From assembly GCA_028875225.1 (NCBI GenBank), contig JAPPFB010000026.1:2963-66962 (forward strand): a DNA stretch of 64,000 bases. The letters are read 5' to 3'. The DNA is from Chloroflexota bacterium. Its GTDB lineage: Bacteria; Chloroflexota; Dehalococcoidia; Bin125. Below the pieces are notes generated by a model. It saw only the letters and a program-made list of their open reading frames with translations. It was not told the DNA's origin and did no database searches. Positions 6,215 through 59,370 of this stretch are shown piece by piece (position 1 is the stretch's first letter; every line of letters begins with the position of its first letter). Position numbers and translations under genes: made by a program.

Positions 6215-6745
6215 TCAGCGCGGTCGGCCTCCTCTCGCGAGCGAGCGGCGGCGGCTGAGCAGGACGCGACGCGCGAGCCAACCGGCCCAGCCGAGGCCGA
6301 CGCTGTTCAGCGCCATGACCTGGAGGTCATAGCCGAAGACGAGCGGCGCCACCGCGAATAGGACGATGAATGGCGTCAGGGCGAGGCCCCGTGAACGGCC
6401 GCCAGTGGCGTCGGTTCTCTTGGACGGCGCTTGGCTCAGCGTCGATGTCCGAGGCTCGGTCGTGTAGGCCGACCAGATCGATTCGCCGGTCAGTTGCTCG
6501 AGCGAGCGGATCACCCGCTCGCGTGAGCAACCGGCCGACTTGCAGCGGACATCGATCCCGTCGCCGTCCGGCCGCTGGCGGAAGGCCAGGAGATCCTGCT
6601 CGGACTCGTGGCAAACGGCGGCGGTCCAGAACCAGCCGCGCTCGAAGCGGACCCGCTGCCTGGGCGCGATCAGCTCGGCGATCCGCGCGGCCGAAGGACC
6701 GACGTAGCGGCCGCGCGTCCGGGCTGTGTGGTTGACGTTCTCCAT
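6215..6745 (-). CDS. Cysteine-motif protein with C-terminal membrane segments
   Basis: Start is ATG 6745, with AGGAAAGGAG upstream, giving 176 residues. The N-terminal ~90 residues include VRFERGWFWTAAVCHE and a CKSAGCSRERVIRSLE motif like the short zinc-knuckle parts of primase-associated proteins. After a Ser/Thr-rich linker come two hydrophobic segments (around residues 122-140 and 144-160) and an Arg-rich tail. It is the first gene of the leftward block, so it may be regulatory or may tie the replication proteins to the membrane. The family is not recognised. Confidence 0.7.
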   Translation of the reverse strand: MENVNHTARTRGRYVGPSAARIAELIAPRQRVRFERGWFWTAAVCHESEQDLLAFRQRPDGDGIDVRCKSAGCSRERVIRSLEQLTGESIWSAYTTEPRTSTLSQAPSKRTDATGGRSRGLALTPFIVLFAVAPLVFGYDLQVMALNSVGLGWAGWLARRVLLSRRRSLARGGRPR

Positions 6746-7670: not shown

Positions 7671-7704
7671 GCGGGAACGCTCAGGATGGCGATCGTGCCC
7701 AGGA

Positions 7705-7797
7705 GTGGTTCACAGATCCTGGCGATTCAGGCGGCGCGGCCACTTCTGGTGCGAGAGCTGCAAGCTCTGGCTGCTGGCCGAAGCGGACGAGCGCTAG
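7705..7797 (+). CDS. Second WCESC peptide, fragment
   Basis: Thirty codons from a possible GTG end in FWCESCKLWLLAEADER, paralleling the 83-residue ORF. A neighbouring frame upstream (containing QEWFTDPGD) looks protein-like too, so this may be the 3' part of a gene with a frameshift near 7730. It was kept because the duplicated motif is unlikely by chance. Confidence 0.25.
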   Translation: MVHRSWRFRRRGHFWCESCKLWLLAEADER

Positions 7798-7843
7798 CAG
7801 CGCGTGATCTCGCCGCTGCACATCTCACGAGCTGGGGCCGCGA

Positions 7844-8410
7844 TCACGCTCCGGCGCCGGGACGCGTGCCGAACGTCGTGGTTGACCTCACCACCGGCGG
7901 TCCGGCGGCGGGGTGAGGAGCGGCGGGGGCGGGCGTTGCGGCTACCGATGCTGTGGATGCTGCAGCGGGAGCCGCCGGTGCGGGCGGCGCGGTCTGCGCG
8001 GCGCGCAGCCGCCAGTGGTTGCGTCCCGTGTTCTCGATCTCGCCCTGTTCCTTGAGCCGCTGCAAGTTCGACTGCAGGGTGGCCATCGGCTTGGCCGAGT
8101 GCGGCGCAGCCTCGTGCCGCTCCAGGTAGGCCAGGATCGCGGTCGCGTGCACCGGTTCGCGCTGCGCTCCGAGGAACTCACGGATCTTACCTGTGGTCAG
8201 GCCGCGCGGCAGACGCGGGCGTTTGGGCGCCGCCCGTCGGGACCCGCGCCGCGCCGGCGGACTGTCAGCGGACGATGCGGTTGCTGCGGCGGACCCGGAC
8301 TCCAGTCTCAGCAGCTGGTCGATCAGCCGGCGCTTCGCGTCGAGCCGCTCAAGTTCCGCCTGGATGCCATCGAGCTGGGCGCGCAGCTCTTCGGCGAACG
8401 AATCGGCCAC
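7844..8410 (-). CDS. Coiled-coil / winged-helix protein, Pro/Ala-rich tail
   Basis: The start is GTG 8410 with GAAAGGACCG upstream; a paralogue at 53166-53594 begins at the equivalent GTG. Domains in order: a short coiled coil (residues 5-40, AQLDGIQAELERLDAKRRLI), an Ala/Ser linker, a basic patch (KRPRLPRGLTTGKIREFL), a winged-helix-like domain (~90-145: VHATAILAYLERHE, MATLQSNLQRLKEQGEI, NHWRLR), and a Pro/Ala tail of ~40 residues. This layout suggests a dimeric DNA-binding regulator. The paralogue lacks the tail. Confidence 0.7.
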   Translation of the reverse strand: MADSFAEELRAQLDGIQAELERLDAKRRLIDQLLRLESGSAAATASSADSPPARRGSRRAAPKRPRLPRGLTTGKIREFLGAQREPVHATAILAYLERHEAAPHSAKPMATLQSNLQRLKEQGEIENTGRNHWRLRAAQTAPPAPAAPAAASTASVAATPAPAAPHPAAGPPVVRSTTTFGTRPGAGA

Positions 8411-8593
8411 GGGGTCGGTCCTTTCGGCGAGGACGACGGTGGCTCGATGGCTGCGGGGCACAGAGTCCGCGGTCGTCGGCAACGCTGTTTCAGCATAGGG
8501 CCGCGCTCACGTGTTGCGCCGAGCGCCGCGGCCGATGCGATGGCGCGCTACCTGCCTGAGCGTCAGGCGAGGGCGCCCCCTTCGGTCTCGATC

Positions 8594-8752
8594 TCACGGT
8601 TTGCCTCGCCTGGCCGGGCCGACGCCGGCTGTCAATGCGCCGTGGCCGGCGAGGATCAGAAACGGTCCGATGCTGTGGACTAATGCAACGCCGGTGACCA
8701 GCAGCGCGACGCCCAGACCCATCAGACAGCGTGAGCAGGGCAGGCGAGACAT
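8594..8752 (-). CDS. Tiny membrane protein, family C (52 aa)
   Basis: This 52-residue protein begins MSRLPCSRCLMGLGVALL and has two short hydrophobic segments. It matches the start of the ORF at 57878-58192 (MSRLSLARCFFGAGVVILL): both keep MSRL, an RC pair, the G-x-GV turn and an IG further on. It lies 9 bp after the gene at 8762 on the same strand, in a run of five small membrane-protein genes. Function is unknown. Confidence 0.5.
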   Translation of the reverse strand: MSRLPCSRCLMGLGVALLVTGVALVHSIGPFLILAGHGALTAGVGPARRGKP

Positions 8753-8761
8753 GCGAGCCAA

Positions 8762-9037
8762 TCAGCTGAGCACGTGCCAGAGGCCGAAGCACCAGCAGCC
8801 CCAGACGCACAGCGCCGCCGTGACCCGCCAGCACGAGCGAACCAGCACGGCGGCCGCAGTGATCGGTAGTGGCACCAGGACCAGAATGATCAGTCCGACG
8901 CCGCTGAGCGCGCTGGCGAGGCCGAGGAACGCCGCCGCGGCGCCGACGATGAGCAGGGCGTTGGACTGGCGTCTGCGGCGATCCGTCTTCGTCACTTTCG
9001 GGCTCCGAAGCAGGGAAGACGCGAGCAGCTGGTGCAT
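8762..9037 (-). CDS. Tiny membrane protein, probably family A (91 aa)
   Basis: A basic N-terminus (KTDRRRRQSN) is followed by two or three membrane spans and an aromatic C-terminus ending FGLWHVLS. The start (LLIVGAAAAFLGL) and the C-terminal RSCWR...W...FG layout resemble family A members at 9123 and 9609, but identity is low. Start ATG 9037; a GTG in frame 14 codons later is an alternative. It lies within the small membrane-protein run. The function is unknown; an immunity-like role is only a hypothesis. Confidence 0.5.
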   Translation of the reverse strand: MHQLLASSLLRSPKVTKTDRRRRQSNALLIVGAAAAFLGLASALSGVGLIILVLVPLPITAAAVLVRSCWRVTAALCVWGCWCFGLWHVLS

Positions 9038-9122
9038 CCCTCAGCTCGAATCGTAGATCGCCCGGCCGACCAACGCGCTGCTGCGTCGACGCCTCCAGTA
9101 CTTCCGCCGCCGCTCCCGCGCC

Positions 9123-9383
9123 TCAGGCCCAGATCAGGTCGCCGACGGAAACGGACCACCACATGCAGAGGGTCAACAGCACCGCCAGGATCGGCCGCCG
9201 CCGGGAGCGCCTTCGGATGAACCCGGCCCCGACAGCCAGATGGCCGGCGAACAGGGATGCGTAGACGGCCGCCGCGCTGCCAATCAGGATCCCCCAGCCG
9301 AACGACGAGGCGCCGTCGATCAGCCCGACGATCATCAGCGCCAGGGGGCAATCCACCCGCTTGGGCACGCCGTGTGTCCCCAC
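9123..9383 (-). CDS. Tiny membrane protein, family A (86 aa)
   Basis: The GTG start lies three bases after the stop of the preceding gene, so the pair is likely co-transcribed. The protein has three hydrophobic segments with an Arg cluster (RRRSRRRP) before the last one. Family A signature: VGLIDGASSFGW near the N-terminus and W-W-S-V-S-VGDLIW at the C-terminus, shared with 9609 (VGGLLGASPFGWW, LGQWFW) and 51556 (IGGLVGVSAIAW, FGDFLW). At 51556 the homologue follows a secreted protein gene; here there is none nearby. Confidence 0.6.
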   Translation of the reverse strand: MGTHGVPKRVDCPLALMIVGLIDGASSFGWGILIGSAAAVYASLFAGHLAVGAGFIRRRSRRRPILAVLLTLCMWWSVSVGDLIWA

Positions 9384-9386
9384 TGA

Positions 9387-9590
9387 TCAGTCCCAGCTGA
9401 GGGCCGCGTAGAGCCAGCCGCAGGCGATCGTGATCCCGACGGCGAACACGACCGCCCGCGCCCAACTGCGTTCCAGCACGATCCCCACCGGCGTCAGCGG
9501 CGCCCCGACCGCCGCGAACAGGCCCGCCCAGAGTCCCAGGCCGAGGTCGAGCAGGATGAGCCCGACAAACGACCTGGCTTGAGCGGACAC
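9387..9590 (-). CDS. Tiny membrane protein, family B (67 aa)
   Basis: This 67-residue protein has two membrane spans and a GTG start. Its second half (VGIVLERSWARAVVFAVG then CGWL) aligns with the ORF at 58208-58459 (IGFVLEHSRERMMVFAVG then CGWL), with roughly half of residues identical over 50. That paralogue lies directly downstream of a secreted Cys-rich protein gene. The conserved charged pair E-(R/H)-S between the spans suggests a loop that contacts a partner. Function is unknown. Confidence 0.6.
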   Translation of the reverse strand: MSAQARSFVGLILLDLGLGLWAGLFAAVGAPLTPVGIVLERSWARAVVFAVGITIACGWLYAALSWD

Positions 9591-9608
9591 CCGGGTCGGC
9601 CCCCTCGT

Positions 9609-9887
9609 CTAGTCCCAGAACCACTGGCCCAACCAGGCGGGCCACCAGACGAGCAACGTGAATCCCGCCGCCAACCCGAATCGCCTGATCGTCGGATCGA
9701 GCAGGAAGCCGACCAGGATCGCCACGTGCGCCGCCCCCAGCAGGCCGTGAAATCCGCCCAGCCACCAGCCGAACGGGGAGGCGCCCAGCAGGCCGCCCAC
9801 GACGATCAACGAGTCCGGAAACGTCACGCGTTTCCAGATGGGACGTCGCTCGCGGCGCTGATCGTCAAGCGGCGACGGTGGAGACAT
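9609..9887 (-). CDS. Tiny membrane protein, family A (92 aa)
   Basis: Start is ATG 9887 after GGGAGCACTCGAG; a longer frame to 9953 has no ribosome site. A charged cytoplasmic head (DDQRRERRPIWKRVTF) precedes three hydrophobic spans. The family A signature VGGLLGASPFGWW lies at the start of the first span and WWPAWLGQWFW at the C-terminus. It is the first gene of the five-gene small membrane run, only 18 bp before the family B gene. Function is unknown. Confidence 0.6.
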   Translation of the reverse strand: MSPPSPLDDQRRERRPIWKRVTFPDSLIVVGGLLGASPFGWWLGGFHGLLGAAHVAILVGFLLDPTIRRFGLAAGFTLLVWWPAWLGQWFWD

Positions 9888-9967
9888 CTCGAGTGCTCCC
9901 AACCGCAGCCGCCTTCGGTCCTGGTCGCTCAGGATTCGTCCGCGGGCCCTCACTCGCAGCGTAGCCG

Positions 9968-10900
9968 TCAGCCGCGCCCACGGCCCCAGAGCCCCAGGGT
10001 CAGCAGCCGCAGCAGCCAGTGCACGACCTGCGCCCGGCGCCGGTCGCGCCGCACCCGACCCAGCGCCTCCCGCGTCACGCGCAGTTCGGTCTGCCGCCTG
10101 GGCCCGTCCCAGGGGCGGCCCGCGGGCGGCAGGGTCAGGCCGTGTTCGCCGACCAGCTCGATCTCCAATTCCAACAGCCGCTCGTCGGCCCTGAGCCTGT
10201 CGAGCCTGTCAAGAGTGGTGGACGCCTGTTCCCGCCGCGCCCTGGCCCGGCGCCATGCGGCGACCGTCGGCATCGCCTCGCCGTAGAACCGCCGCTCGCC
10301 CGGAGCCGACTCCGTCGTAACCAGCTCGGGGTACGGGCGGAGGGGGGAGTCCACCGTCTTGATGCTTGTCGCCCTTGTCGCCTCACCGACTGACTCGACC
10401 GACGCGACCGTTTCTCCGTCTTCCCCGCCCTGCTGCAGAGCAGTCACCTGTTGCTGCAGCTGTTCCAGCGAAGCCGCGAGCCGCTCCACATTCCCGTGGA
10501 TCCCGAGGATGTCGCCGATGTCCTCGGGCAAGACCTGCTCCAGCCTGTCCACGCGCCGCCTCAGGTTGGCCAGTTCCGCCGACGTCTCCAGGGTCAGTGG
10601 GGTCAGCGGGGACAGCGCCTCCGACCCGTGTTGCTTCGCCTCGTAGTCTTCCAACGCGCGCAGGAACTGCTCGCTCAGCGGGGCGCCCGCCTCAGCATGC
10701 TCCACCCGTTGCAACGTGCGTTCGCTCAGGTCCAGCAGCTCAGCCGTCCGCCGCCGCCCTTGGGTGCGCAGGAGGTCCTGTAGGAGACCGCCCAGCCGCC
10801 CCGCCCGGTCGCCGGCCGCCGCTTCTCCACCCCCGGGGACAGCGCCGACCCCGTTGGCCCTGGCCGCGTCCTCCCCACCCGGCTGTTGCCCGTCACTCAC
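9968..10900 (-). CDS. HTH / coiled-coil protein divergent from replication-relaxation gene
   Basis: The protein is 310 residues, with a disordered N-terminus, then a helix-turn-helix-like segment at ~45-75 (RRRTAELLDLSERTLQRVEH). A coiled coil follows at ~108-158 (LANLRRRVDRLEQVL, LEQLQQQVTALQQ), then a conserved C-terminal domain (FYGEAMPTVAAWRRA, ERLLELEIELVGEHGLTLPP) and a hydrophobic VVHWLLRLLTLGLWG end. A paralogue at 39780-40727 has the same order. Each is divergent from a replication-relaxation gene across ~290 bp, so the pair is a conserved cassette. It is probably a DNA-binding partner or repressor. Confidence 0.75.
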   Translation of the reverse strand: MSDGQQPGGEDAARANGVGAVPGGGEAAAGDRAGRLGGLLQDLLRTQGRRRTAELLDLSERTLQRVEHAEAGAPLSEQFLRALEDYEAKQHGSEALSPLTPLTLETSAELANLRRRVDRLEQVLPEDIGDILGIHGNVERLAASLEQLQQQVTALQQGGEDGETVASVESVGEATRATSIKTVDSPLRPYPELVTTESAPGERRFYGEAMPTVAAWRRARARREQASTTLDRLDRLRADERLLELEIELVGEHGLTLPPAGRPWDGPRRQTELRVTREALGRVRRDRRRAQVVHWLLRLLTLGLWGRGRG

Positions 10901-11192
10901 TGTCTGCCGCCCGCTTCCCGCTCTCCAACCTCGTGAGAACCAGCACGCGCAGATCTTGCCCGCCCTGCACCCGCCCGCGAATCACGTGCGCCCTGCAAAA
11001 CACCGGGCGCGGCGCATACCTGTCCAGGAGTTGTCATCTGCCTTCTCCTGTACACGGGTCCGGGGTCGACCGCCGGGCATTCGCTGGACAACTCCCGGAC
11101 ATAGGGCCATCGTAGTACATGTGTTCCTGTACCGGGGGTGGGTCGACGAGGACCGATCAGCCGAGGCCGCTGCAGCGCACCTGGAGACGACG
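10901..11192. promoter_or_regulatory. Divergent control region with inverted and direct repeats
   Basis: An inverted repeat pairs GTCCAGGAGTTGTC (11022-11035) with GACAACTCCCGGAC (11087-11100), 13 of 14 positions complementary. An imperfect direct repeat TCCTGTAC-CGGG-GGTCGAC lies at 11046-11070 and 11125-11147. Both sit between divergent genes, the expected place for operators shared by the two promoters. Promoter boxes are not clear. Confidence 0.55.
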
Positions 11193-12842
11193 ATGGAGCC
11201 CGATCTGAGCCTTGCCGTGGTGGAGCTGCTCGAGCAGCTGGCCCAGACCCCCCTGGCCGACAGGATCGAGTTGGCGGCGCTCTCGGGCCGCTCGACCGCG
11301 ACGGTGTACCGGGGGATCGAGAGGCTCTCCGAGCACGGTCTGGTCGAAGCGGTCCCGCACGCGACCGAACTCATGCCGCGCACGAGCCGGTTCTTGCTCA
11401 CGGCCGGCGGCCTGGCCCGTCTCGCCGGAGAGCAGGGCGTGAGCACGGCGGAGTTGCTTCGGGCCCGGCCGGTCTCGGAGCAGTGGCGGCGCAGCCTCCT
11501 GCGCCGGCTGGACGGGGTCGGCGCCGTCTACCGGCTCGCCTCGGGGCTGGCTGAGGTCTCCTACCCGCTTCGCCTGCGCTGGTACCGCGCGGCACCGGCC
11601 GACGCCGGGATCGCGCTGGCCGACGGCCGCACGCTGGCCGTCGTGCGCCTGGGACGGACAGTCGAACGCTCGGCGGCCTCGCAGCGGACGCGCCGCCTGG
11701 GCGCAGGCCCGGGCTACTCGGCGGCGTTGGTCCTGGTCCAGGACGAGACGCGTCTCAGGCAGATGCGCCGCCTCGCGCGCGGTCTGCCGTTCGGCTGTTT
11801 CCTCGCGCTCGAGCGCCACGCGCTGGCCGCCTCAGCCGACGACGCGGTATGGATCGCGCGCGCGGGCGGGCCGGCGCTGAGCCTCGAGGACGCGCTCGGC
11901 TACGTCTCGGGTCCGGGCGAGTGGGGCCGAGAGCGGACTCCGGCCCGCCGCTCGATGCCGCGCTCGGTGAGCACCGATGAGGACCGCGACGCTCGGATGT
12001 CCAGCCTGCTGGGAGCGGCCGAGAAGCGGACCCTGGACCTGATCGGCGACTGGCCCTGGCTCGCGCCCGGGGATCTGGTGGGGCTGATGGGGGTCGGCCG
12101 CCGGCGCGTCTCGCAGCTCACGGGCTCGCTGCGCGAACTGGAACTGATCGCCGAGGCCCGCGTCGAGTGCCAACGCAGGCTCACGCTCACCGACCGGTCG
12201 CTGGCGCTGCTGGCTAGGCGCGACCGGGCCAGTCCGCACCTGGCGCGCCGGCGCTGGAGCGCAGGGCCGATCGGCCCGGAGCGAGCGCCGCATTGGCGAG
12301 ACGTGCCCGGCCGCCAAACCCGCCAGCTGCTGCGCCACATCGGCCACACGGCGGCCGTGCACCGCTTCGGGGCCGCACTGGCCGGGCAGGCACGCGGCCT
12401 GGGCTGGGAACTGCTCCAGCTCGATCCGCCGCAGCGCGCCTCGCGCTACTTCCGCTCCGAGGGCGTGCTGCGCTCGATTCACCCCGACGCCTTCGTCATG
12501 CTCCGCTCGGAGGGCGAGCGGAGGCCGGCCTTCCTCGAGTGGGAGCGCCGCGCGATCCGGCCGAAGACGATGCGGGCCCGGCTCGCACCCTATCTGCGCT
12601 ACTTCGCGACCAGGCGGCCGACCGACGATCACGGCGTCCGGCCCCAGCTCTGGCTGGTGTTCGACGACCCGCTGGCGGCCGACCGCTTCCTCACGGTCGC
12701 CCGGGCCGAGCTGCGCAGGACGCGGGTCGAACTGCCGCTCGTGGTCTCCGATCGCGAGCGGATCGCGGAGCTCGGCCCCTTGGGCGCGGCCTGGCGCGGG
12801 ACAGACGGCTGGGACTGGCGCGAACCGCTCGCGACGGGCTGA
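11193..12842 (+). CDS. Replication-relaxation family protein, copy 1
   Basis: ATG 11193 with GGAG six bases upstream gives 549 residues; the longer open frame is not needed and the paralogue starts at the equivalent place. Two winged-helix domains are seen: residues 10-90 (LADRIELAALSGRSTATVYR) and ~280-350 (GDLVGLMGVGRRRVSQL). The C-terminal domain has a nuclease-like core with EWERRAIRPKTMRARLAPY near residue 450. This matches the replication-relaxation family of Actinobacteria and Chloroflexota mobile elements, whose members are thought to act as relaxase or replication initiator-like proteins. It is divergent from the HTH/coiled-coil gene. Confidence 0.82.
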   Translation: MEPDLSLAVVELLEQLAQTPLADRIELAALSGRSTATVYRGIERLSEHGLVEAVPHATELMPRTSRFLLTAGGLARLAGEQGVSTAELLRARPVSEQWRRSLLRRLDGVGAVYRLASGLAEVSYPLRLRWYRAAPADAGIALADGRTLAVVRLGRTVERSAASQRTRRLGAGPGYSAALVLVQDETRLRQMRRLARGLPFGCFLALERHALAASADDAVWIARAGGPALSLEDALGYVSGPGEWGRERTPARRSMPRSVSTDEDRDARMSSLLGAAEKRTLDLIGDWPWLAPGDLVGLMGVGRRRVSQLTGSLRELELIAEARVECQRRLTLTDRSLALLARRDRASPHLARRRWSAGPIGPERAPHWRDVPGRQTRQLLRHIGHTAAVHRFGAALAGQARGLGWELLQLDPPQRASRYFRSEGVLRSIHPDAFVMLRSEGERRPAFLEWERRAIRPKTMRARLAPYLRYFATRRPTDDHGVRPQLWLVFDDPLAADRFLTVARAELRRTRVELPLVVSDRERIAELGPLGAAWRGTDGWDWREPLATG

Positions 12843-51555: not shown

Positions 51556-51801
51556 CTATTGCCGCCCCCACAGGAAATCGCCGAACACCATGGGCCATCC
51601 CATCAGCAGGACGAACACCAAGGCGATGAGCAGCCGACGCCACGACAGTCTGAGGAACACGCCGGCCGTGACCAGAACCAGTCCGCCAGCGAGCGCCAGA
51701 TAGGTAGTGCCGACATCGCCGAGCGCGAGATACCAAGCGATCGCCGAGACTCCGACCAGGCCGCCAATGACCATCGCCGCCGTCGAGAGTTGATTTCGCA
51801 T
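51556..51801 (-). CDS. Tiny membrane protein, family A, after secreted-protein gene
   Basis: The protein is 81 residues with three hydrophobic spans. The family A signature is IGGLVGVSAIAW in the first span and GWPMVFGDFLW at the end, with an Arg pair (LSWRR) before the third span. It matches 9123 and 9609. It starts 46 bp after the secreted-protein gene, with a GC hairpin between them. The arrangement of secreted protein followed by small membrane protein is repeated at 58 kb with family B and C. An immunity or processing role is a hypothesis. Confidence 0.6.
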   Translation of the reverse strand: MRNQLSTAAMVIGGLVGVSAIAWYLALGDVGTTYLALAGGLVLVTAGVFLRLSWRRLLIALVFVLLMGWPMVFGDFLWGRQ

Positions 51802-51847: not shown

Positions 51848-52702
51848 CTAACTACCGGTCTGACAGTAGGTGTGCTTGTGCAGGTTGGGGTACCAACCGG
51901 CGCCGGAGACCCACTTGAACCTGAAGTAACAGGTGTACGATCCGGTCCCCCTGACCCTCGTCGTCACCTTCGACTCCGCGTAGACATCTCGGTTGAGCGT
52001 CGTCGGGAAGCCGTCAGAGTGCCAATCGACCTCGTCCCAGGCGTCGTAGATCGTGTTGATGGAGTTCATATTGGTGCCCTTGACGGCCATGTGCCGGTGC
52101 CACCACTGGTTGGTGAAGCGGTCGACGGTCTGCCGGGCTGTGGAGATCGTGCCGTTCGCGTAGCTCCAGTCGACCCGCGAGTAGTGCCAGAACATCGGGA
52201 TGTGGGCAACGTCGTGTCCGATTAGCCTCGAGATGGCCCACTTGCTGGTCGACGACGAAGATGCCAGAGCAATCCCTTGGTCCTCAGCAAAGGTGACCTC
52301 GGACGAAACCTCAACCCCGTCGCAGGCGCCGACGAACTCGTAGGCGACCTCCAGGCCGTCTCCGGTCATCGCCGGTGTGTAGTTGACCTGGCAGTCTGTC
52401 GGAACCTCACCTTGAGTGGTCGGAGGCGTCACCGTGAGGTAGAACTGGCAGTCGCTGTCGGTGTAGGTGGCGTTCTCGCTGCGCAGGGTGCCTACGTCTA
52501 GTACACCCTCAGCCAACCCCTCGCAGATGGCACCCCCTCGGGGATCGCCGACACTCGGCTCGTGTGCCTGGATGGTGCTGGAGGTCAGCAGAAACACAAC
52601 GACCGCCACTGCTGTGGCGGCCGCCATGAACGCTCCGGGGATGAAGCGTCTACTTCGTTGACCATCGTGCTTGTGGATGAGGTGGTCGAATCGGGACTGC
52701 AT
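51848..52702 (-). CDS. Secreted/anchored Cys-containing protein 1
   Basis: Start ATG 52702 has AAAGGAGGGAC upstream, conserved with the copy at 58522. The 284-residue protein has a short charged head (SRFDHLIHKHDGQRSRRF), one hydrophobic segment (~22-42) ending in IQAH, then an extracytoplasmic part. Shared blocks with copy 2: CEGL near the start, TVTPP, CQVNYTP, VGACDGVEV, FWHYSRVDWSY and a final YTCYFRFKW-GAGW-Y. Six or more Cys could form disulfides. No known family was recognised. Toxin, bacteriocin-like or surface protein are possible. Confidence 0.65.
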   Translation of the reverse strand: MQSRFDHLIHKHDGQRSRRFIPGAFMAAATAVAVVVFLLTSSTIQAHEPSVGDPRGGAICEGLAEGVLDVGTLRSENATYTDSDCQFYLTVTPPTTQGEVPTDCQVNYTPAMTGDGLEVAYEFVGACDGVEVSSEVTFAEDQGIALASSSSTSKWAISRLIGHDVAHIPMFWHYSRVDWSYANGTISTARQTVDRFTNQWWHRHMAVKGTNMNSINTIYDAWDEVDWHSDGFPTTLNRDVYAESKVTTRVRGTGSYTCYFRFKWVSGAGWYPNLHKHTYCQTGS

Positions 52703-53594: not shown

Positions 53595-53846
53595 GGGCGA
53601 TGCTCCCTTCGGTCGCGGCGCGGCGCCTGAGACTCGTTCGGCAGCGCAGGACTTCGCGAGCCGATACTTGTAGCCAAGGTGCCTCTACGCAGACTATGCC
53701 AGCCCGGGGACGTAGCTGGGCTCCGCGGCGACTGTCATGAGACAAGACCTTGGACAGTGGTTGTCAGAGTCCTTGGGCCATGTTGGCGGCCACTGGCTGC
53801 TCGGACCACGAGCCGGTCTGGCGATCTCAGGCTAGAGTTTGCAGCC

Positions 53847-56750
53847 ATGGCTCCTGAACAGGGACCGCTCGGATCCGAGGTCGTCAGTGCGTCGGCTTCG
53901 GGCGCCTGGGGCCGGCTCTCGAACCTCTGGCGCTACCGCTCGATCGACGTGGACGAGATCTTCGTCGACCTGGTCCGCGCAGCCACGGGCGGCCGCAACC
54001 GTGTTCCAATCGCGGCGATCGACGCCGCTGGCTGGCAGCACGGGAGGCTCGGCGCCCGCTGTTGGCTCACGACCGGCGGCGGCCGCCGGTTCGTGGTCGG
54101 CGGGCTGTCGTCCGTAGACGCCGCTCTCGTCGCGGCCACGGTCGAGCAGCGGGCTCAGGCTCTGGCCCGCGCCCTGGAGACACAAGGCCGGGCTATCGCT
54201 GCGCAGCTCGATCAGTGGTTCGCGGGCGCCGACTACCTGCGCGCCTCCCAGGCGCAAGCGGTTCAGCAGCAGCTGGATCGGCTGACGGGCGAGACGTTCC
54301 CGACGTCCGGCGAACTCACCCGGCGGTATCTGTCGCCCGAGAGCCAGGAGGCGTTCTCTCGATTACAGGAACTGACAGTGGAGGATGGGTTCGAGCAGGC
54401 CCGCCGGAGGACCAACGCCAGATACGTCTGGCGGGAATCGCAGCGCGCCGCTGAGGCGATGGCGCGGGTGAGCGGATTTCTGCCGATCCCGGAGCAGGCC
54501 GAGGCGGTGGCGACGGACGAGGACGTGACCCTGGTCCTGGCCGGAGCGGGCACGGGCAAGACGGCGGTGATCACGGGCAAGGTCGCGCACCTGATCGCGA
54601 ATCGCGCGGTCGCGCCGGAGCGGATCCTGGTGCTGGCCTTCAATCGCCAGGCCGCCGCCGAGTTGCGCGAGCGCCTCCAGCCGGGTCACGCCGGCGTCGA
54701 TGTCGCCACCTTCCACGCCTTCGCCCGGCGCGTCGTCGCCCAACGCCAGCTGGCGCCCTCGATCTCGCCGCTGGCCGAGGACGAGATGCAGTTGCGCCGG
54801 TTGATCGACCAGACCCTCGAGTCGCTGCTGCGCGACCCCGAGCAGGGCTCGGCGCTGCGCCAGTTCATCCTCTACCACCTGGGGGAGTACCGCGCCGCGC
54901 ACGACTTCGAGCGGCCCTCGGACTACTTCGAGTACCTGCACAGAGTCGAGTTGCGCACGCTCGGGGGCGAGCGGGTGAGAAGCCTGGAGGAGCTCAAGAT
55001 CGCCAACCTCCTCGCCCTGCACGGCGTCCCTTACCGCTACGAGGCCGCCTACCCGGTCGCCACGGCGACGACGGCGCAGCGCCAGTACCAACCCGACTTC
55101 TACCTGCCCCAACACGACCTCTACATCGAACATTTTGCCGTTGATCGACGCGGTGAACCGCCGCCGCACTGGCCCGAGGCCGCACGCGAGGAATACCGTC
55201 GCGGGATCGAATGGAAGCGGGCGATTCACGCCGAGCACGGCACGCCGCTGCTGGAGACCTACAGCTGGCAACACCGGACCGGCAGCTGGCAGCACAACCT
55301 GCGGGAGCAGCTCGAGGCCTGGGGGGTCGCGCTGCAGCCGCGCCCGCCGCAGGAACTCGTCGAACGGCTCAGGCGGCTGATGCGCAGTTCGCAGCTGAGC
55401 CGCCTGCTCGCCGCCTTCCTCCGCCACGTGACCTCCGGCCAGCACGAGGAGACAGAACTCGGGCGGCGCGCCTCGGAGGCCGCCGATCCGGAACGGGCGC
55501 ACGCCTTCCTCGAGCTGTTCCGGGCGGTCTACGCCGCCTACCGCACGGCGCTGGGTGGCGAGTGCGACTTTGACGACCTGATCAACCGGGCGGCGCAGGC
55601 CATCGGCGAGGGCGGCTGGGACTCGCCCTACGACTACGTGCTGGTCGACGAGTTCCAGGACATCTCGCGCGGCCGGATGAGGCTGTTGGCCGCACTGAAG
55701 CGGCCGCGAACCGCCTACTTCCTCGTCGGAGACGACTGGCAGTCGATCTACCGCTTCGCCGGCAGCGATGTGCACCTGTTGCGCGACTGCGAGTGCTGGC
55801 TGGGACCGGTGGAAGAACGCACGCTAAGCCGGACCTTCCGCTTCGCCGAAGGCATCCTCGCCCCATTGAGCGGCTTCGTCCAGCGTAATCCCGCCCAGAC
55901 CACGCGCCGGCTGCTCCCGGCCCAGCGGTCACCGGACCACGGCATCGCCGTGATTTGGGCGAGCGAGGCGAGCGTCGGCATCGGTCAGGCAGTTGCTGAC
56001 CTCGAGCGCCTGGGCGTCAGCCGCCAGGCCTCGGTCCTGGTCCTCAGCCGCTACCGGCAGCGCCTGCCCAGCGTGCAGGTCAGGGGCCGCACGCTGCAAC
56101 AGAGCACGGTCCACGCCGCCAAGGGCCGCGAGGCGGACTACGTCGTCGTGCTCGACCTCAAGGGCGAGCGCCGCGGGTTCCCCTCGCAGATCGAGGACGA
56201 CCCGCTGCTCGACCTGGTCGCGCCGCCGGCGGAGCCGTTCGAGTTCGCCGAGGAACGCCGCTGCTTCTACGTCGCGCTGACCCGAGCCCGCCACGGCGTC
56301 TACCTGCTCGCCGACCCGCTGCGTCCCTCGCCGTTTGTCACCGAGTTGCTCGAACATGCAGAGTCGGACATCCGGCTCGTCGGCGGAGCCGCAGCGCAGC
56401 CCAGGCAGATACTCCACTGCCCGCGCTGCGAGGGCGGCCGGCTGATCCAGGCGCGGCGCGGCCGGTCTCTGCGCTGCAGCCTCGGGCCGCATTGCGACTA
56501 CCGCGCCCCGCGCTGTTCCTGCGGTGCGGGGCACATCCTGGTCGGGCAGGACCTCCGGGTGCGCTGCACCAATGCTGGCTGCGGCGCGTCGCCCGAGCAC
56601 TGTTCCCGCTGTCATTGGGGCGTGCTCGTCAAGCGGAACGGTCCCTATGGTGCCTTCTGGGGATGCTCCCGCTTCTCTGCCGACCCGTCCTGCGATTTCA
56701 CCCGCGACCGGAGGTCCGCCAACGCTGCGCCGCGACGAGCGCGCCCATAG
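53847..56750 (+). CDS. UvrD/HelD-type helicase with nuclease-like insert and zinc ribbons
   Basis: ATG 53847 gives 967 residues; earlier starts lack a ribosome site. The N-terminal ~200 residues resemble helicase IV-type regions. Walker A AGAGTGKTAVI ~231; LVDEFQDI (motif II) ~598; a late HAAKGREADYVVVLD ~750. Between motifs Ia and II an insert (~380-470) has SLEELKIANLL, YQPDFYLP, LYIEHF and IEWKRAIH, the E-D-E-K order of a PD-(D/E)XK/DUF559-like nuclease. The C-terminus has several CxxC pairs (CPRC, CSCG, CSRCHWG) as in topoisomerase zinc ribbons. It probably repairs or degrades foreign DNA. Confidence 0.88.
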   Translation: MAPEQGPLGSEVVSASASGAWGRLSNLWRYRSIDVDEIFVDLVRAATGGRNRVPIAAIDAAGWQHGRLGARCWLTTGGGRRFVVGGLSSVDAALVAATVEQRAQALARALETQGRAIAAQLDQWFAGADYLRASQAQAVQQQLDRLTGETFPTSGELTRRYLSPESQEAFSRLQELTVEDGFEQARRRTNARYVWRESQRAAEAMARVSGFLPIPEQAEAVATDEDVTLVLAGAGTGKTAVITGKVAHLIANRAVAPERILVLAFNRQAAAELRERLQPGHAGVDVATFHAFARRVVAQRQLAPSISPLAEDEMQLRRLIDQTLESLLRDPEQGSALRQFILYHLGEYRAAHDFERPSDYFEYLHRVELRTLGGERVRSLEELKIANLLALHGVPYRYEAAYPVATATTAQRQYQPDFYLPQHDLYIEHFAVDRRGEPPPHWPEAAREEYRRGIEWKRAIHAEHGTPLLETYSWQHRTGSWQHNLREQLEAWGVALQPRPPQELVERLRRLMRSSQLSRLLAAFLRHVTSGQHEETELGRRASEAADPERAHAFLELFRAVYAAYRTALGGECDFDDLINRAAQAIGEGGWDSPYDYVLVDEFQDISRGRMRLLAALKRPRTAYFLVGDDWQSIYRFAGSDVHLLRDCECWLGPVEERTLSRTFRFAEGILAPLSGFVQRNPAQTTRRLLPAQRSPDHGIAVIWASEASVGIGQAVADLERLGVSRQASVLVLSRYRQRLPSVQVRGRTLQQSTVHAAKGREADYVVVLDLKGERRGFPSQIEDDPLLDLVAPPAEPFEFAEERRCFYVALTRARHGVYLLADPLRPSPFVTELLEHAESDIRLVGGAAAQPRQILHCPRCEGGRLIQARRGRSLRCSLGPHCDYRAPRCSCGAGHILVGQDLRVRCTNAGCGASPEHCSRCHWGVLVKRNGPYGAFWGCSRFSADPSCDFTRDRRSANAAPRRARP

Positions 56751-57877: not shown

Positions 57878-58192
57878 CTATTCCCGGCCGAACCACTCGC
57901 CGGCATGAACAAACTCGTGGTGACACGTTACTGCCACCCCAGCCGTCGCGCCCTGGCGGGAGCGACGGCGCACGCAGGAACAGGATTGGACTCCGCCCCA
58001 TCTACAGGACCTGAACAGCGTCCCGTCGGGGAAAGGGCCTTCATCGCCTCGGATTGCAGCTCCGGCCGGGCCCTCCCCCGCTCCCCGCCCCAGACACGCC
58101 GGTGCACCGATTCCCGGCAACACCGATACGCTGGCGAGCAGTATTACTACCCCAGCGCCGAAGAAACAGCGTGCGAGCGACAGGCGGGACAC
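57878..58192 (-). CDS. Small membrane protein, family C, extended
   Basis: The N-terminus MSRLSLARCFFGAGVVILL parallels the 52-residue ORF at 8594 (MSRLPCSRCLMGLGVALL), both with one or two hydrophobic spans. Here a Cys-rich tail follows (FRSCRWGGVQSCSCVRRR), which may be real or a read-through extension. It starts 15 bp after the family B gene in the module of secreted protein 2. Function is unknown. Confidence 0.45.
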   Translation of the reverse strand: MSRLSLARCFFGAGVVILLASVSVLPGIGAPACLGRGAGEGPAGAAIRGDEGPFPDGTLFRSCRWGGVQSCSCVRRRSRQGATAGVAVTCHHEFVHAGEWFGRE

Positions 58193-58207: not shown

Positions 58208-58459
58208 CTACCAGAATGCAATCCACAACAGCCAACCGCACCCCATCACCACTCCCACGGCAAACACCATCATCCGTTCTCGGCTGTGCTCCAGCACGAA
58301 TCCAATCGCGAGCATGGGCGCTGCAACTGCTGCGATCAATCCTGATTTGAGGCCCAGGCCATAGGCCGTCAAGTAGGAAGCCAGCATCGCCAGCAGGCCA
58401 ACGTTGAGCAGCATCGTCCCCATGAGTTCCCGCACGGCACCCATCCTTATCCCTGCCAT
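58208..58459 (-). CDS. Tiny membrane protein, family B, after secreted-protein gene
   Basis: The protein is 83 residues (or 78 from the second ATG), with two to three hydrophobic spans. Its C-terminal half, IGFVLEHSRERMMVFAVG then CGWL, matches 9387-9590 closely. It begins 62 bp after secreted protein 2, with a hairpin between. In the orphan array at 9 kb its homologue occurs without a secreted partner, so the small gene can be inherited alone. This is the expected behaviour of an immunity gene (hypothesis). Confidence 0.6.
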   Translation of the reverse strand: MAGIRMGAVRELMGTMLLNVGLLAMLASYLTAYGLGLKSGLIAAVAAPMLAIGFVLEHSRERMMVFAVGVVMGCGWLLWIAFW

Positions 58460-58521: not shown

Positions 58522-59370
58522 TCAGTGGACGAGGCAATTGTGGGTGTAGCGGAATCCAGCTATCCCACCTCGGAAGGTCGCACGGCCATAGCAGTCATAG
58601 GCGCCACCCGGCTTAGCTGTGACGCTGGCCCTGGACGCGGCCCTTGCGTCGGGCAATGGCCCGCAGTCGGCGTACCAGTTGGTGTAGTGCTCGCCGAAGT
58701 ATCGGGTTGGAGTACTCGAGGTGCGTCGAGACTCGCTAACTAGTTCCCAGCCGCAGCCACCTTCCCAGTAGCCGGTCGTCAGTGATGGGTTGTAGATGCG
58801 GTTGAGGTCATATGACCAGGCCACTTTCGCGTAGTGCCAGAACAGCTTGATTCCAGGAACCGCGCCTGATCCGTAGTGCCATGCGGTGACCTGGGACCGC
58901 ACAGCCTTATGCGACTGTGACATGGTGGCGCCGGCATCGCCCGCGCCTGTCGAACCAGTGGGACCGACTTCGATTGACGATTCCAGCTCGACACCAGCGC
59001 AGGTGCCGATCGCCACGATCTCCACGGAGAGATCCAATCCTGACCTGACCGGGGTGAAGCTCACCTGGCAACCGCTGACCCCTTCAGATGGCGGAGTAGC
59101 GGTGACGCTTACCTGGCAGCCGTTGTCACCCGAGCCGGTCACTCCGCTAACGCGGCTCTGAGTGATGGAAAGCGTCCCAGAACTCAGTCCCTCGCAAGCC
59201 TGCGCGAGACTGGCCTCCTCTGCCGGACTCGCCGCCTGAGTGTTGATGATGGTCGCCAGAAACAAACCGACCGCCACAATCGTGGCGGCCGCCAGCGTCA
59301 GTCCAGGAATGATGCGCCGTTTCTGCTGCGTGTCGTGCTTGCGGATGAGGCGGTCGAATCGGGACGTCAT
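58522..59370 (-). CDS. Secreted/anchored Cys-containing protein 2
   Basis: ATG 59370 with GAAGGGAGGGAC upstream gives 282 residues. N-terminal head SRFDRLIRKHDTQQKRR, hydrophobic segment (~20-42) and QAASPAEEA match copy 1. Shared blocks: CEGLSSGTL, CQVSVTATPPS, CQVSFTP, IGTCAGVELES, FWHYAKVAWSY and YDCYGRATF-GIAGF-YTHNC. The middle and end differ (for example GGCGWELVSES, NWYADCGP), so the variable part may carry specificity. Its position before family B and C genes defines module 2. No known family was recognised. Confidence 0.65.
   Translation of the reverse strand: MTSRFDRLIRKHDTQQKRRIIPGLTLAAATIVAVGLFLATIINTQAASPAEEASLAQACEGLSSGTLSITQSRVSGVTGSGDNGCQVSVTATPPSEGVSGCQVSFTPVRSGLDLSVEIVAIGTCAGVELESSIEVGPTGSTGAGDAGATMSQSHKAVRSQVTAWHYGSGAVPGIKLFWHYAKVAWSYDLNRIYNPSLTTGYWEGGCGWELVSESRRTSSTPTRYFGEHYTNWYADCGPLPDARAASRASVTAKPGGAYDCYGRATFRGGIAGFRYTHNCLVH

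What the first reader, a model, noticed from the sequence alone, without database searches (positions are those of the whole stretch)
8594..9887. Orphan array of five tiny membrane proteins (families A, B, A, A-like, C)
Five closely spaced minus-strand genes of 52-92 residues include members of all three families found behind the secreted proteins, but no secreted gene is present. An array of immunity-type genes without effectors would protect against several relatives' effectors. The families are too short and diverse for standard annotation, and the 52-residue member is easily missed.
Basis: partly seen in the sequence, partly recalled or inferred. Interest (0 to 1): 0.82.

Follow-up and report, generated by a model that had tools for sequence, protein, structure and literature searches.

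The report
Orphan immunity-gene array of symbiotic Chloroflexota
Five tiny membrane-protein genes sit together without a toxin gene, yet their relatives regularly follow genes for a variable secreted protein; the bacterium probably keeps them as protection against its cousins' toxins, a known strategy that appears here with protein families not described before.

Summary
Window 8594-9887 encodes five small hydrophobic proteins under purifying selection. Their families lie, elsewhere in the genus, directly behind genes for a Sec-type secreted protein ("S": shared leader, variable mature part). Two corrections: the "A-like" gene 8762 is a fourth family, X, closer to B than to A; and the C copy behind the second secreted gene is a broken fragment. 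Six of six S loci of this lineage are followed by A, B or X genes; a sister S lineage is followed by a ~280-aa soluble protein, K, in five of five. The array lies in a fixed chromosomal slot (R-Q-[slot]-P-T) that holds A-B-A-X-C here, X-C, C or a decayed X in three relatives, X plus an orphan K beside a decayed S tail in another, and none in three more. A second array in one relative sits behind a decayed S. The first A gene is closer to the partner of another species' S (59%) than to its own genome's (36%). Best reading: an orphan immunity array left by effector turnover. It works like the Vibrio cholerae T6SS immunity arrays but belongs to an undescribed Sec-secreted polymorphic effector family. 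Toxicity and protection are inferred, not shown.

The parts
9609..9887 (-). array gene 1, family A, 92 aa; 77% identical to an orphan gene of congener G009, 59% to the partner of an S gene in congener G008, 36% to the partner of the window's own S1
9387..9590 (-). array gene 2, family B, 67 aa; carries an in-frame loss of about 13 residues in the first membrane segment relative to other B proteins, still under purifying selection
9123..9383 (-). array gene 3, family A, 86 aa; 58% identical to an orphan gene of G009
8594..8752 (-). array gene 5, family C, 52 aa; 80% identical to C in the same slot of G005, 68% to C in G002
9968..10900 (-). slot border gene Q (310 aa, unknown function), conserved upstream of the slot in congeners
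10716..12842 (+). slot border gene R (Replication-relaxation-like, PF13814), divergent from Q and conserved in synteny
7844..8458 (-). slot border gene P (204 aa, unknown function), conserved downstream of the slot in congeners
6215..6742 (-). slot border gene T (175 aa, unknown function), conserved downstream of P
51848..52702 (-). secreted protein S1 (284 aa; leader, N-domain about 58-140, eight-stranded C-domain about 150-284)
51556..51801 (-). family A partner directly behind S1
58522..59370 (-). secreted protein S2 (282 aa), same family as S1 (36% identical)
58208..58459 (-). family B partner directly behind S2
58100..58192 (-). family C remnant behind S2: about the first 30 codons match C of G002, then the sequence diverges; so the long ORF 57878-58192 is not an intact C gene

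Best explanation
The five genes are an orphan immunity array. Shown: each belongs to a small membrane-protein family whose members elsewhere in the genus lie behind genes for a Sec-type secreted protein S with a shared leader and variable mature domains; S genes decay repeatedly while the small genes stay intact; the array sits in a fixed chromosomal slot whose content varies between species. Inferred: S is an antibacterial protein that acts at the target's cytoplasmic membrane or envelope; the 2-3-TM protein encoded behind it blocks it in the producer; copies kept without their S protect the cell against S proteins of co-resident relatives.
For: Adjacency: S1-A and S2-B-C(broken) in the window; G008 S-X, S-A and S-B-X-X; G002 S-B-C. 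The sister S lineage has K behind it in 5 of 5 loci, one of them in this genome. Polymorphism: S leaders are 61-68% identical within G008 while N- and C-domains are 19-38%. The two S proteins that share partner family A are 43% identical in the C-domain against 22-26% between them and those with B or X partners; the leader instead follows the genome. Effector loss with partner retained: G009:C8, decayed S (fragments, internal deletion) then D-A-A-B-C-X; G009:C7, S tail only, then an intact K; G006:C10, truncated S then two K genes. Slot: R-Q-[A-B-A-X-C]-P-T here, Q-[X-C]-P-T in G002, [C]-P at a contig edge in G005, [decayed X] in G004, [X + K] in G009. Nearest relatives: array gene 1 is 59% identical to the S partner of G008 and 36% to the window's own. 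Purifying selection on all five. Beta-rich two-domain S model, pLDDT 77.5; C-domain alone 88.6.
Against: No toxicity or protection data exist. No export or delivery gene was identified beyond the leader. The S C-domain has no sequence match in Pfam and only a borderline fold match. K has no clear membrane segment in most copies, so a membrane-site model does not cover the sister lineage. N-domains of S diverge almost as much as C-domains, so only the leader is a truly constant part. Most orphan genes other than array gene 1 are nearest to other orphans rather than to S-linked copies. Array gene 2 has lost part of a membrane segment, a possible sign of decay.
Confidence: 0.62

Rival explanations
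1. S and the small membrane proteins form a non-toxic envelope system: S is a surface or secreted binding protein and the small protein is its membrane anchor, export aid or sensor; orphan copies are spare receptors.
For: S has a leader and beta domains, the partners are membrane proteins, and no toxic activity is known for the fold.
Against: A receptor or anchor should be lost with its S and should be one conserved family. Here partners of unrelated kinds (A, B, X, soluble K) stand behind one S family, and they persist after S decays in several loci.
Confidence: 0.22
2. The small proteins are themselves toxic (holin-like or type I toxin-like peptides), and the array is a set of small membrane toxins or phage remnants.
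For: Very short, hydrophobic; weak sub-threshold similarity of gene 8762 to a holin model.
Against: The holin score is far below its cut-off. No relatives of A in viral contigs and no phage structural genes at the slot borders. Several different families co-occur, and they track S genes.
Confidence: 0.06
3. The array is a decaying residue with no present function, left behind by loss of S genes.
For: In-frame loss in gene 2; a decayed X in the same slot of G004 and a broken C behind S2.
Against: dN/dS of 0.15-0.35 for four genes across diverged species, and intact reading frames in G002 and G005. Long conservation of functionless 50-90-aa membrane ORFs is unlikely.
Confidence: 0.1

Closest known systems
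Orphan immunity arrays of Vibrio cholerae type VI secretion clusters (Kirchberger 2017, PMC5361080)
   Same: Several immunity genes in a row without effectors, explained by successive displacement of effectors with retention of immunity; orphan genes resemble cognate genes of other strains.
   Different: No T6SS evidence here; the effector-like gene carries a Sec-type leader; the array sits in a separate slot rather than only at the 3' end of an effector cluster; the families match no model searched here.
Recombinase-associated interbacterial defence (rAID) clusters of gut Bacteroidales (PMC12247911)
   Same: Arrays of orphan immunity genes at a locus without the effector, thought to protect against neighbours.
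   Different: No recombinase gene among the slot border genes examined; membrane proteins instead of soluble SUKH-type immunity proteins; different phylum.
Small integral-membrane immunity proteins of pore-forming colicins and class II bacteriocins (own knowledge)
   Same: Small membrane proteins with a few membrane segments, encoded directly behind a secreted toxin.
   Different: No sequence match to any Pfam or NCBIfam model; S is a 280-aa two-domain beta protein rather than a colicin or a short peptide.
Listeria Lmo2686/Zea (4k15) and Bacillus BAS0735 (3c5p) fold
   Same: The S1 C-domain model aligns at Z 8.8 (96 residues, 3.0 A) and Z 8.4 (112 residues, 2.8 A); the next row has Z 4.4. Zea is a Sec-secreted hexamer (PMC6907008).
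   Different: 7-10% identity, Foldseek E above 0.01; Zea is described as an RNA-binding protein, not as an antibacterial toxin. The borderline Z does not establish a shared function.

Membership tests
Orphan immunity array (general kind, as in V. cholerae) | Members are homologous to genes that lie beside an effector elsewhere | tested here: met
   All families of the array occur behind S genes in the window or in congeners; that S is an effector is itself inferred
Orphan immunity array (general kind, as in V. cholerae) | No intact effector at the array itself | tested here: met
   No S similarity at 7700-10960
Orphan immunity array (general kind, as in V. cholerae) | Orphan genes resemble cognate immunity genes of other strains or species | tested here: inconclusive
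   True for array gene 1 (59% to the G008 S partner, 36% to own); the other genes are nearest to other orphans
Orphan immunity array (general kind, as in V. cholerae) | Traces of effector displacement with immunity retained | tested here: met
   Decayed S beside intact partners in G009 C8 and C7 and G006 C10; not in the window's own slot
Orphan immunity array (general kind, as in V. cholerae) | Products protect against the effector | not testable with these tools
   needs a growth assay
V. cholerae T6SS arrays in the strict sense | Linked to T6SS structural genes and effectors | not tested
   No genome-wide search for T6SS genes was made; the border genes examined are not T6SS genes
rAID clusters | Recombinase gene linked to the array | tested here: not met
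   Slot borders P, Q, R, T carry no recombinase domain in Pfam
Known bacteriocin-immunity protein families | Match to a curated model | tested here: not met
   No model reaches its cut-off in Pfam or NCBIfam
Zea/Lmo2686-like fold (S C-domain) | Clear fold match standing above background | tested here: inconclusive
   Z 8.8 and 8.4 against 4.4 for the next row, but near the level that unmatched models can reach; Foldseek E 0.014

The most novel reading that the evidence does not exclude
A previously undescribed class of Sec-exported polymorphic antibacterial proteins of uncultured Chloroflexota symbionts, with an eight-stranded C-domain of possibly Zea-like fold, countered by genus-specific miniature membrane immunity families (A, B, C, D, X) or a soluble partner (K), and a dedicated chromosomal slot where immunity genes collect without effectors.
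Probability: 0.4. Interest if true: 0.75.

Novelty: new variant of a known kind. Interest (0 to 1): 0.62.

Why it matters
Interbacterial toxins of uncultured Chloroflexota symbionts are, to my knowledge, almost unexplored. A recurrent orphan-immunity slot would give a genomic record of which effectors a lineage has faced, and the five genes with the S proteins of congeners form a ready set for direct protection tests. If confirmed, effector displacement with immunity retention would extend beyond type VI systems to plain Sec-exported proteins.

Tried and rejected
Pfam, NCBIfam, PADLOC and PHROGs gave no convincing family for the small proteins, S or K; sub-threshold hits (holin, TraL, CorA, SMK1) scatter and were treated as chance. 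PDB sequence profiles of S gave only GFP-like and integrin stretches at chance level. The Zea/BAS0735 fold match was not taken as functional evidence. Viral contigs gave no relatives of S or A (the X/B alignment could not be used there); plasmids gave none for S1. A phylum-wide sample of 301 genomes gave the X/B profile only in this genome, and a class sample found S-like genes outside the genus only in genus g85 of family f33 plus one weak hit. An S remnant in the window's own slot was sought and not found. Consensus promoter and terminator scans around the array found nothing. Rfam had no match in the window. Weak A6 hits in mostly ~320-330-aa ORFs (E 0.002-0.04) were set aside as unrelated. 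Literature searches for BAS0735, YolA/YolB and SB0664 returned nothing.

Full report
What was checked. The five minus-strand ORFs exist at the stated place. Homologues fix two starts: gene 4 begins at the GTG 8995 (77 aa) and gene 5 at the ATG 8752 (52 aa). Gaps between the genes are 18, 3, 127 and 9 bases, so they could be read as one transcript; consensus scans found no promoter or terminator.

Families are real. Composition-preserving shuffles of the same hydrophobic sequences are beaten by z 9.3 to 18.2 within A, 18.2 for B and 9.4 for C, with 0 of 500 shuffles reaching the score. Profile comparison links X to B (90%, E 1.6e-6) and only weakly to A (46%). C is a 52-60-residue protein without the third hydrophobic segment; the copy behind S2 in the window follows C of G002 for about 30 codons and then diverges, so it is broken.

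Selection. Against congeners the codon pattern is that of maintained genes: dN/dS 0.15, 0.35, 0.32 and 0.18 for genes 1-4 versus G009, and 0.27-0.51 for gene 5 over four comparisons. Gene 2 has lost about 13 residues in frame in its first membrane segment.

Where the families live. In the 15-genome genus sample, A, B and X occur only in a subset of species, and the X/B profile was found in no other genome of a 301-genome phylum sample. Congeners found by name are Chloroflexota MAGs: RHO2_bin_60, SB0664_bin_15 and a Dehalococcoidia bin. That these come from marine sponges is my recollection and was not tested.

Link to a secreted protein. S1 and S2 (36% identical) have a conserved basic leader with one hydrophobic segment and then two beta domains (AlphaFold2 pLDDT 77.5; C-domain alone 88.6). 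Each S locus of this lineage is followed by family members: S1-A, S2-B-C(broken), G008 S-X, G008 S-A, G008 S-B-X-X, G002 S(tail only)-B-C. A sister S lineage is followed by a soluble ~280-aa protein K in five loci: G008, G009, G006, G012 and this genome's own contig C21. S-like genes of another family of the class (f33) overlap or adjoin a reading frame with several membrane segments.

Why effector and immunity. (i) Leaders are similar within a genome (61-68% in G008) while mature domains are 19-38% identical; the two S proteins that share partner family A are 43% identical in the C-domain, against 22-26% between them and S proteins with B or X partners. (ii) S decays and the partner stays: G009:C8 has S fragments with an internal deletion and frame breaks, followed by intact D-A-A-B-C-X; G009:C7 has only an S tail beside an intact K; G006:C10 has a truncated S followed by one complete and one shortened K. 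(iii) Array gene 1 is 59% identical to the partner of an S gene in G008 and 36% to the partner of its own genome's S1; likewise an X of G012 is 63% identical to the S-linked X of G008.

A slot for orphans. The array lies between border genes Q and P, with R and T outside. The same borders enclose X-C in G002, a decayed X in G004, C at a contig edge in G005 and X plus K in G009; in G001, G006 and G011 the slot holds none of these families, and in G001 and G011 it holds a different shared gene. The window's slot has no S remnant.

Mechanism proposed. S is exported through its leader and acts on the envelope of neighbouring cells; the 2-3-segment membrane partner neutralises it at the membrane. 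When a lineage swaps or loses an S gene, the old partner remains and is useful while relatives still make that S. Every functional step here is inference; the comparative steps are shown. K lacks clear membrane segments in most copies, so the sister lineage may act elsewhere.

Comparison. The arrangement works like the V. cholerae T6SS immunity arrays (PMC5361080) and the rAID clusters of Bacteroidales (PMC12247911), but no recombinase was seen in the border genes and the families match no curated model. Fold search of the S C-domain gives Lmo2686/Zea (Z 8.8) and BAS0735 (Z 8.4), well above the next row at 4.4 but near the level that unmatched models reach; this is a lead only.

Verdict. Observation confirmed with two corrections; interpretation well supported by comparison, unproven in function. 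A new variant of a known kind.

Noticed in passing
window:56988-57851 (-) and 53679-56750 (+): A TIR-domain protein (PF13676) and a UvrD-like helicase with a zinc ribbon lie between S1 and S2, possibly part of a defence island.
   Followed up: no
window:49787-51244 (-): An IS21-type transposase (rve, Mu-transpos_C_2) lies directly downstream of the S1-A pair.
   Followed up: no
window:53166-53594 (-): A paralogue of slot border gene P (60% identical) lies upstream of S1, also in G004 and G005, so P-family genes stand near both S and the orphan slot.
   Followed up: partly
L037:3104-3255, L037:6930-7081, L038:5299-5450: Upstream of three G008 S genes a conserved stretch AATGTACGAC...CGTA, partly palindromic, lies about 100 bases before the start codon; possible regulator site.
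   Followed up: partly
L088:4040-5862 (own genome contig C21): This genome also carries an intact-looking S gene of the sister lineage followed by its soluble partner K.
   Followed up: partly
L047:2344-2832: In G012 two X-like units are fused in one 163-aa reading frame, next to a single X and a B-like gene.
   Followed up: no
L091:3625-4566 and L093:3137-4078: The slot of G011 and G001 holds a shared 314-aa gene that resembles VanW-type proteins from memory; not tested against a library.
   Followed up: no
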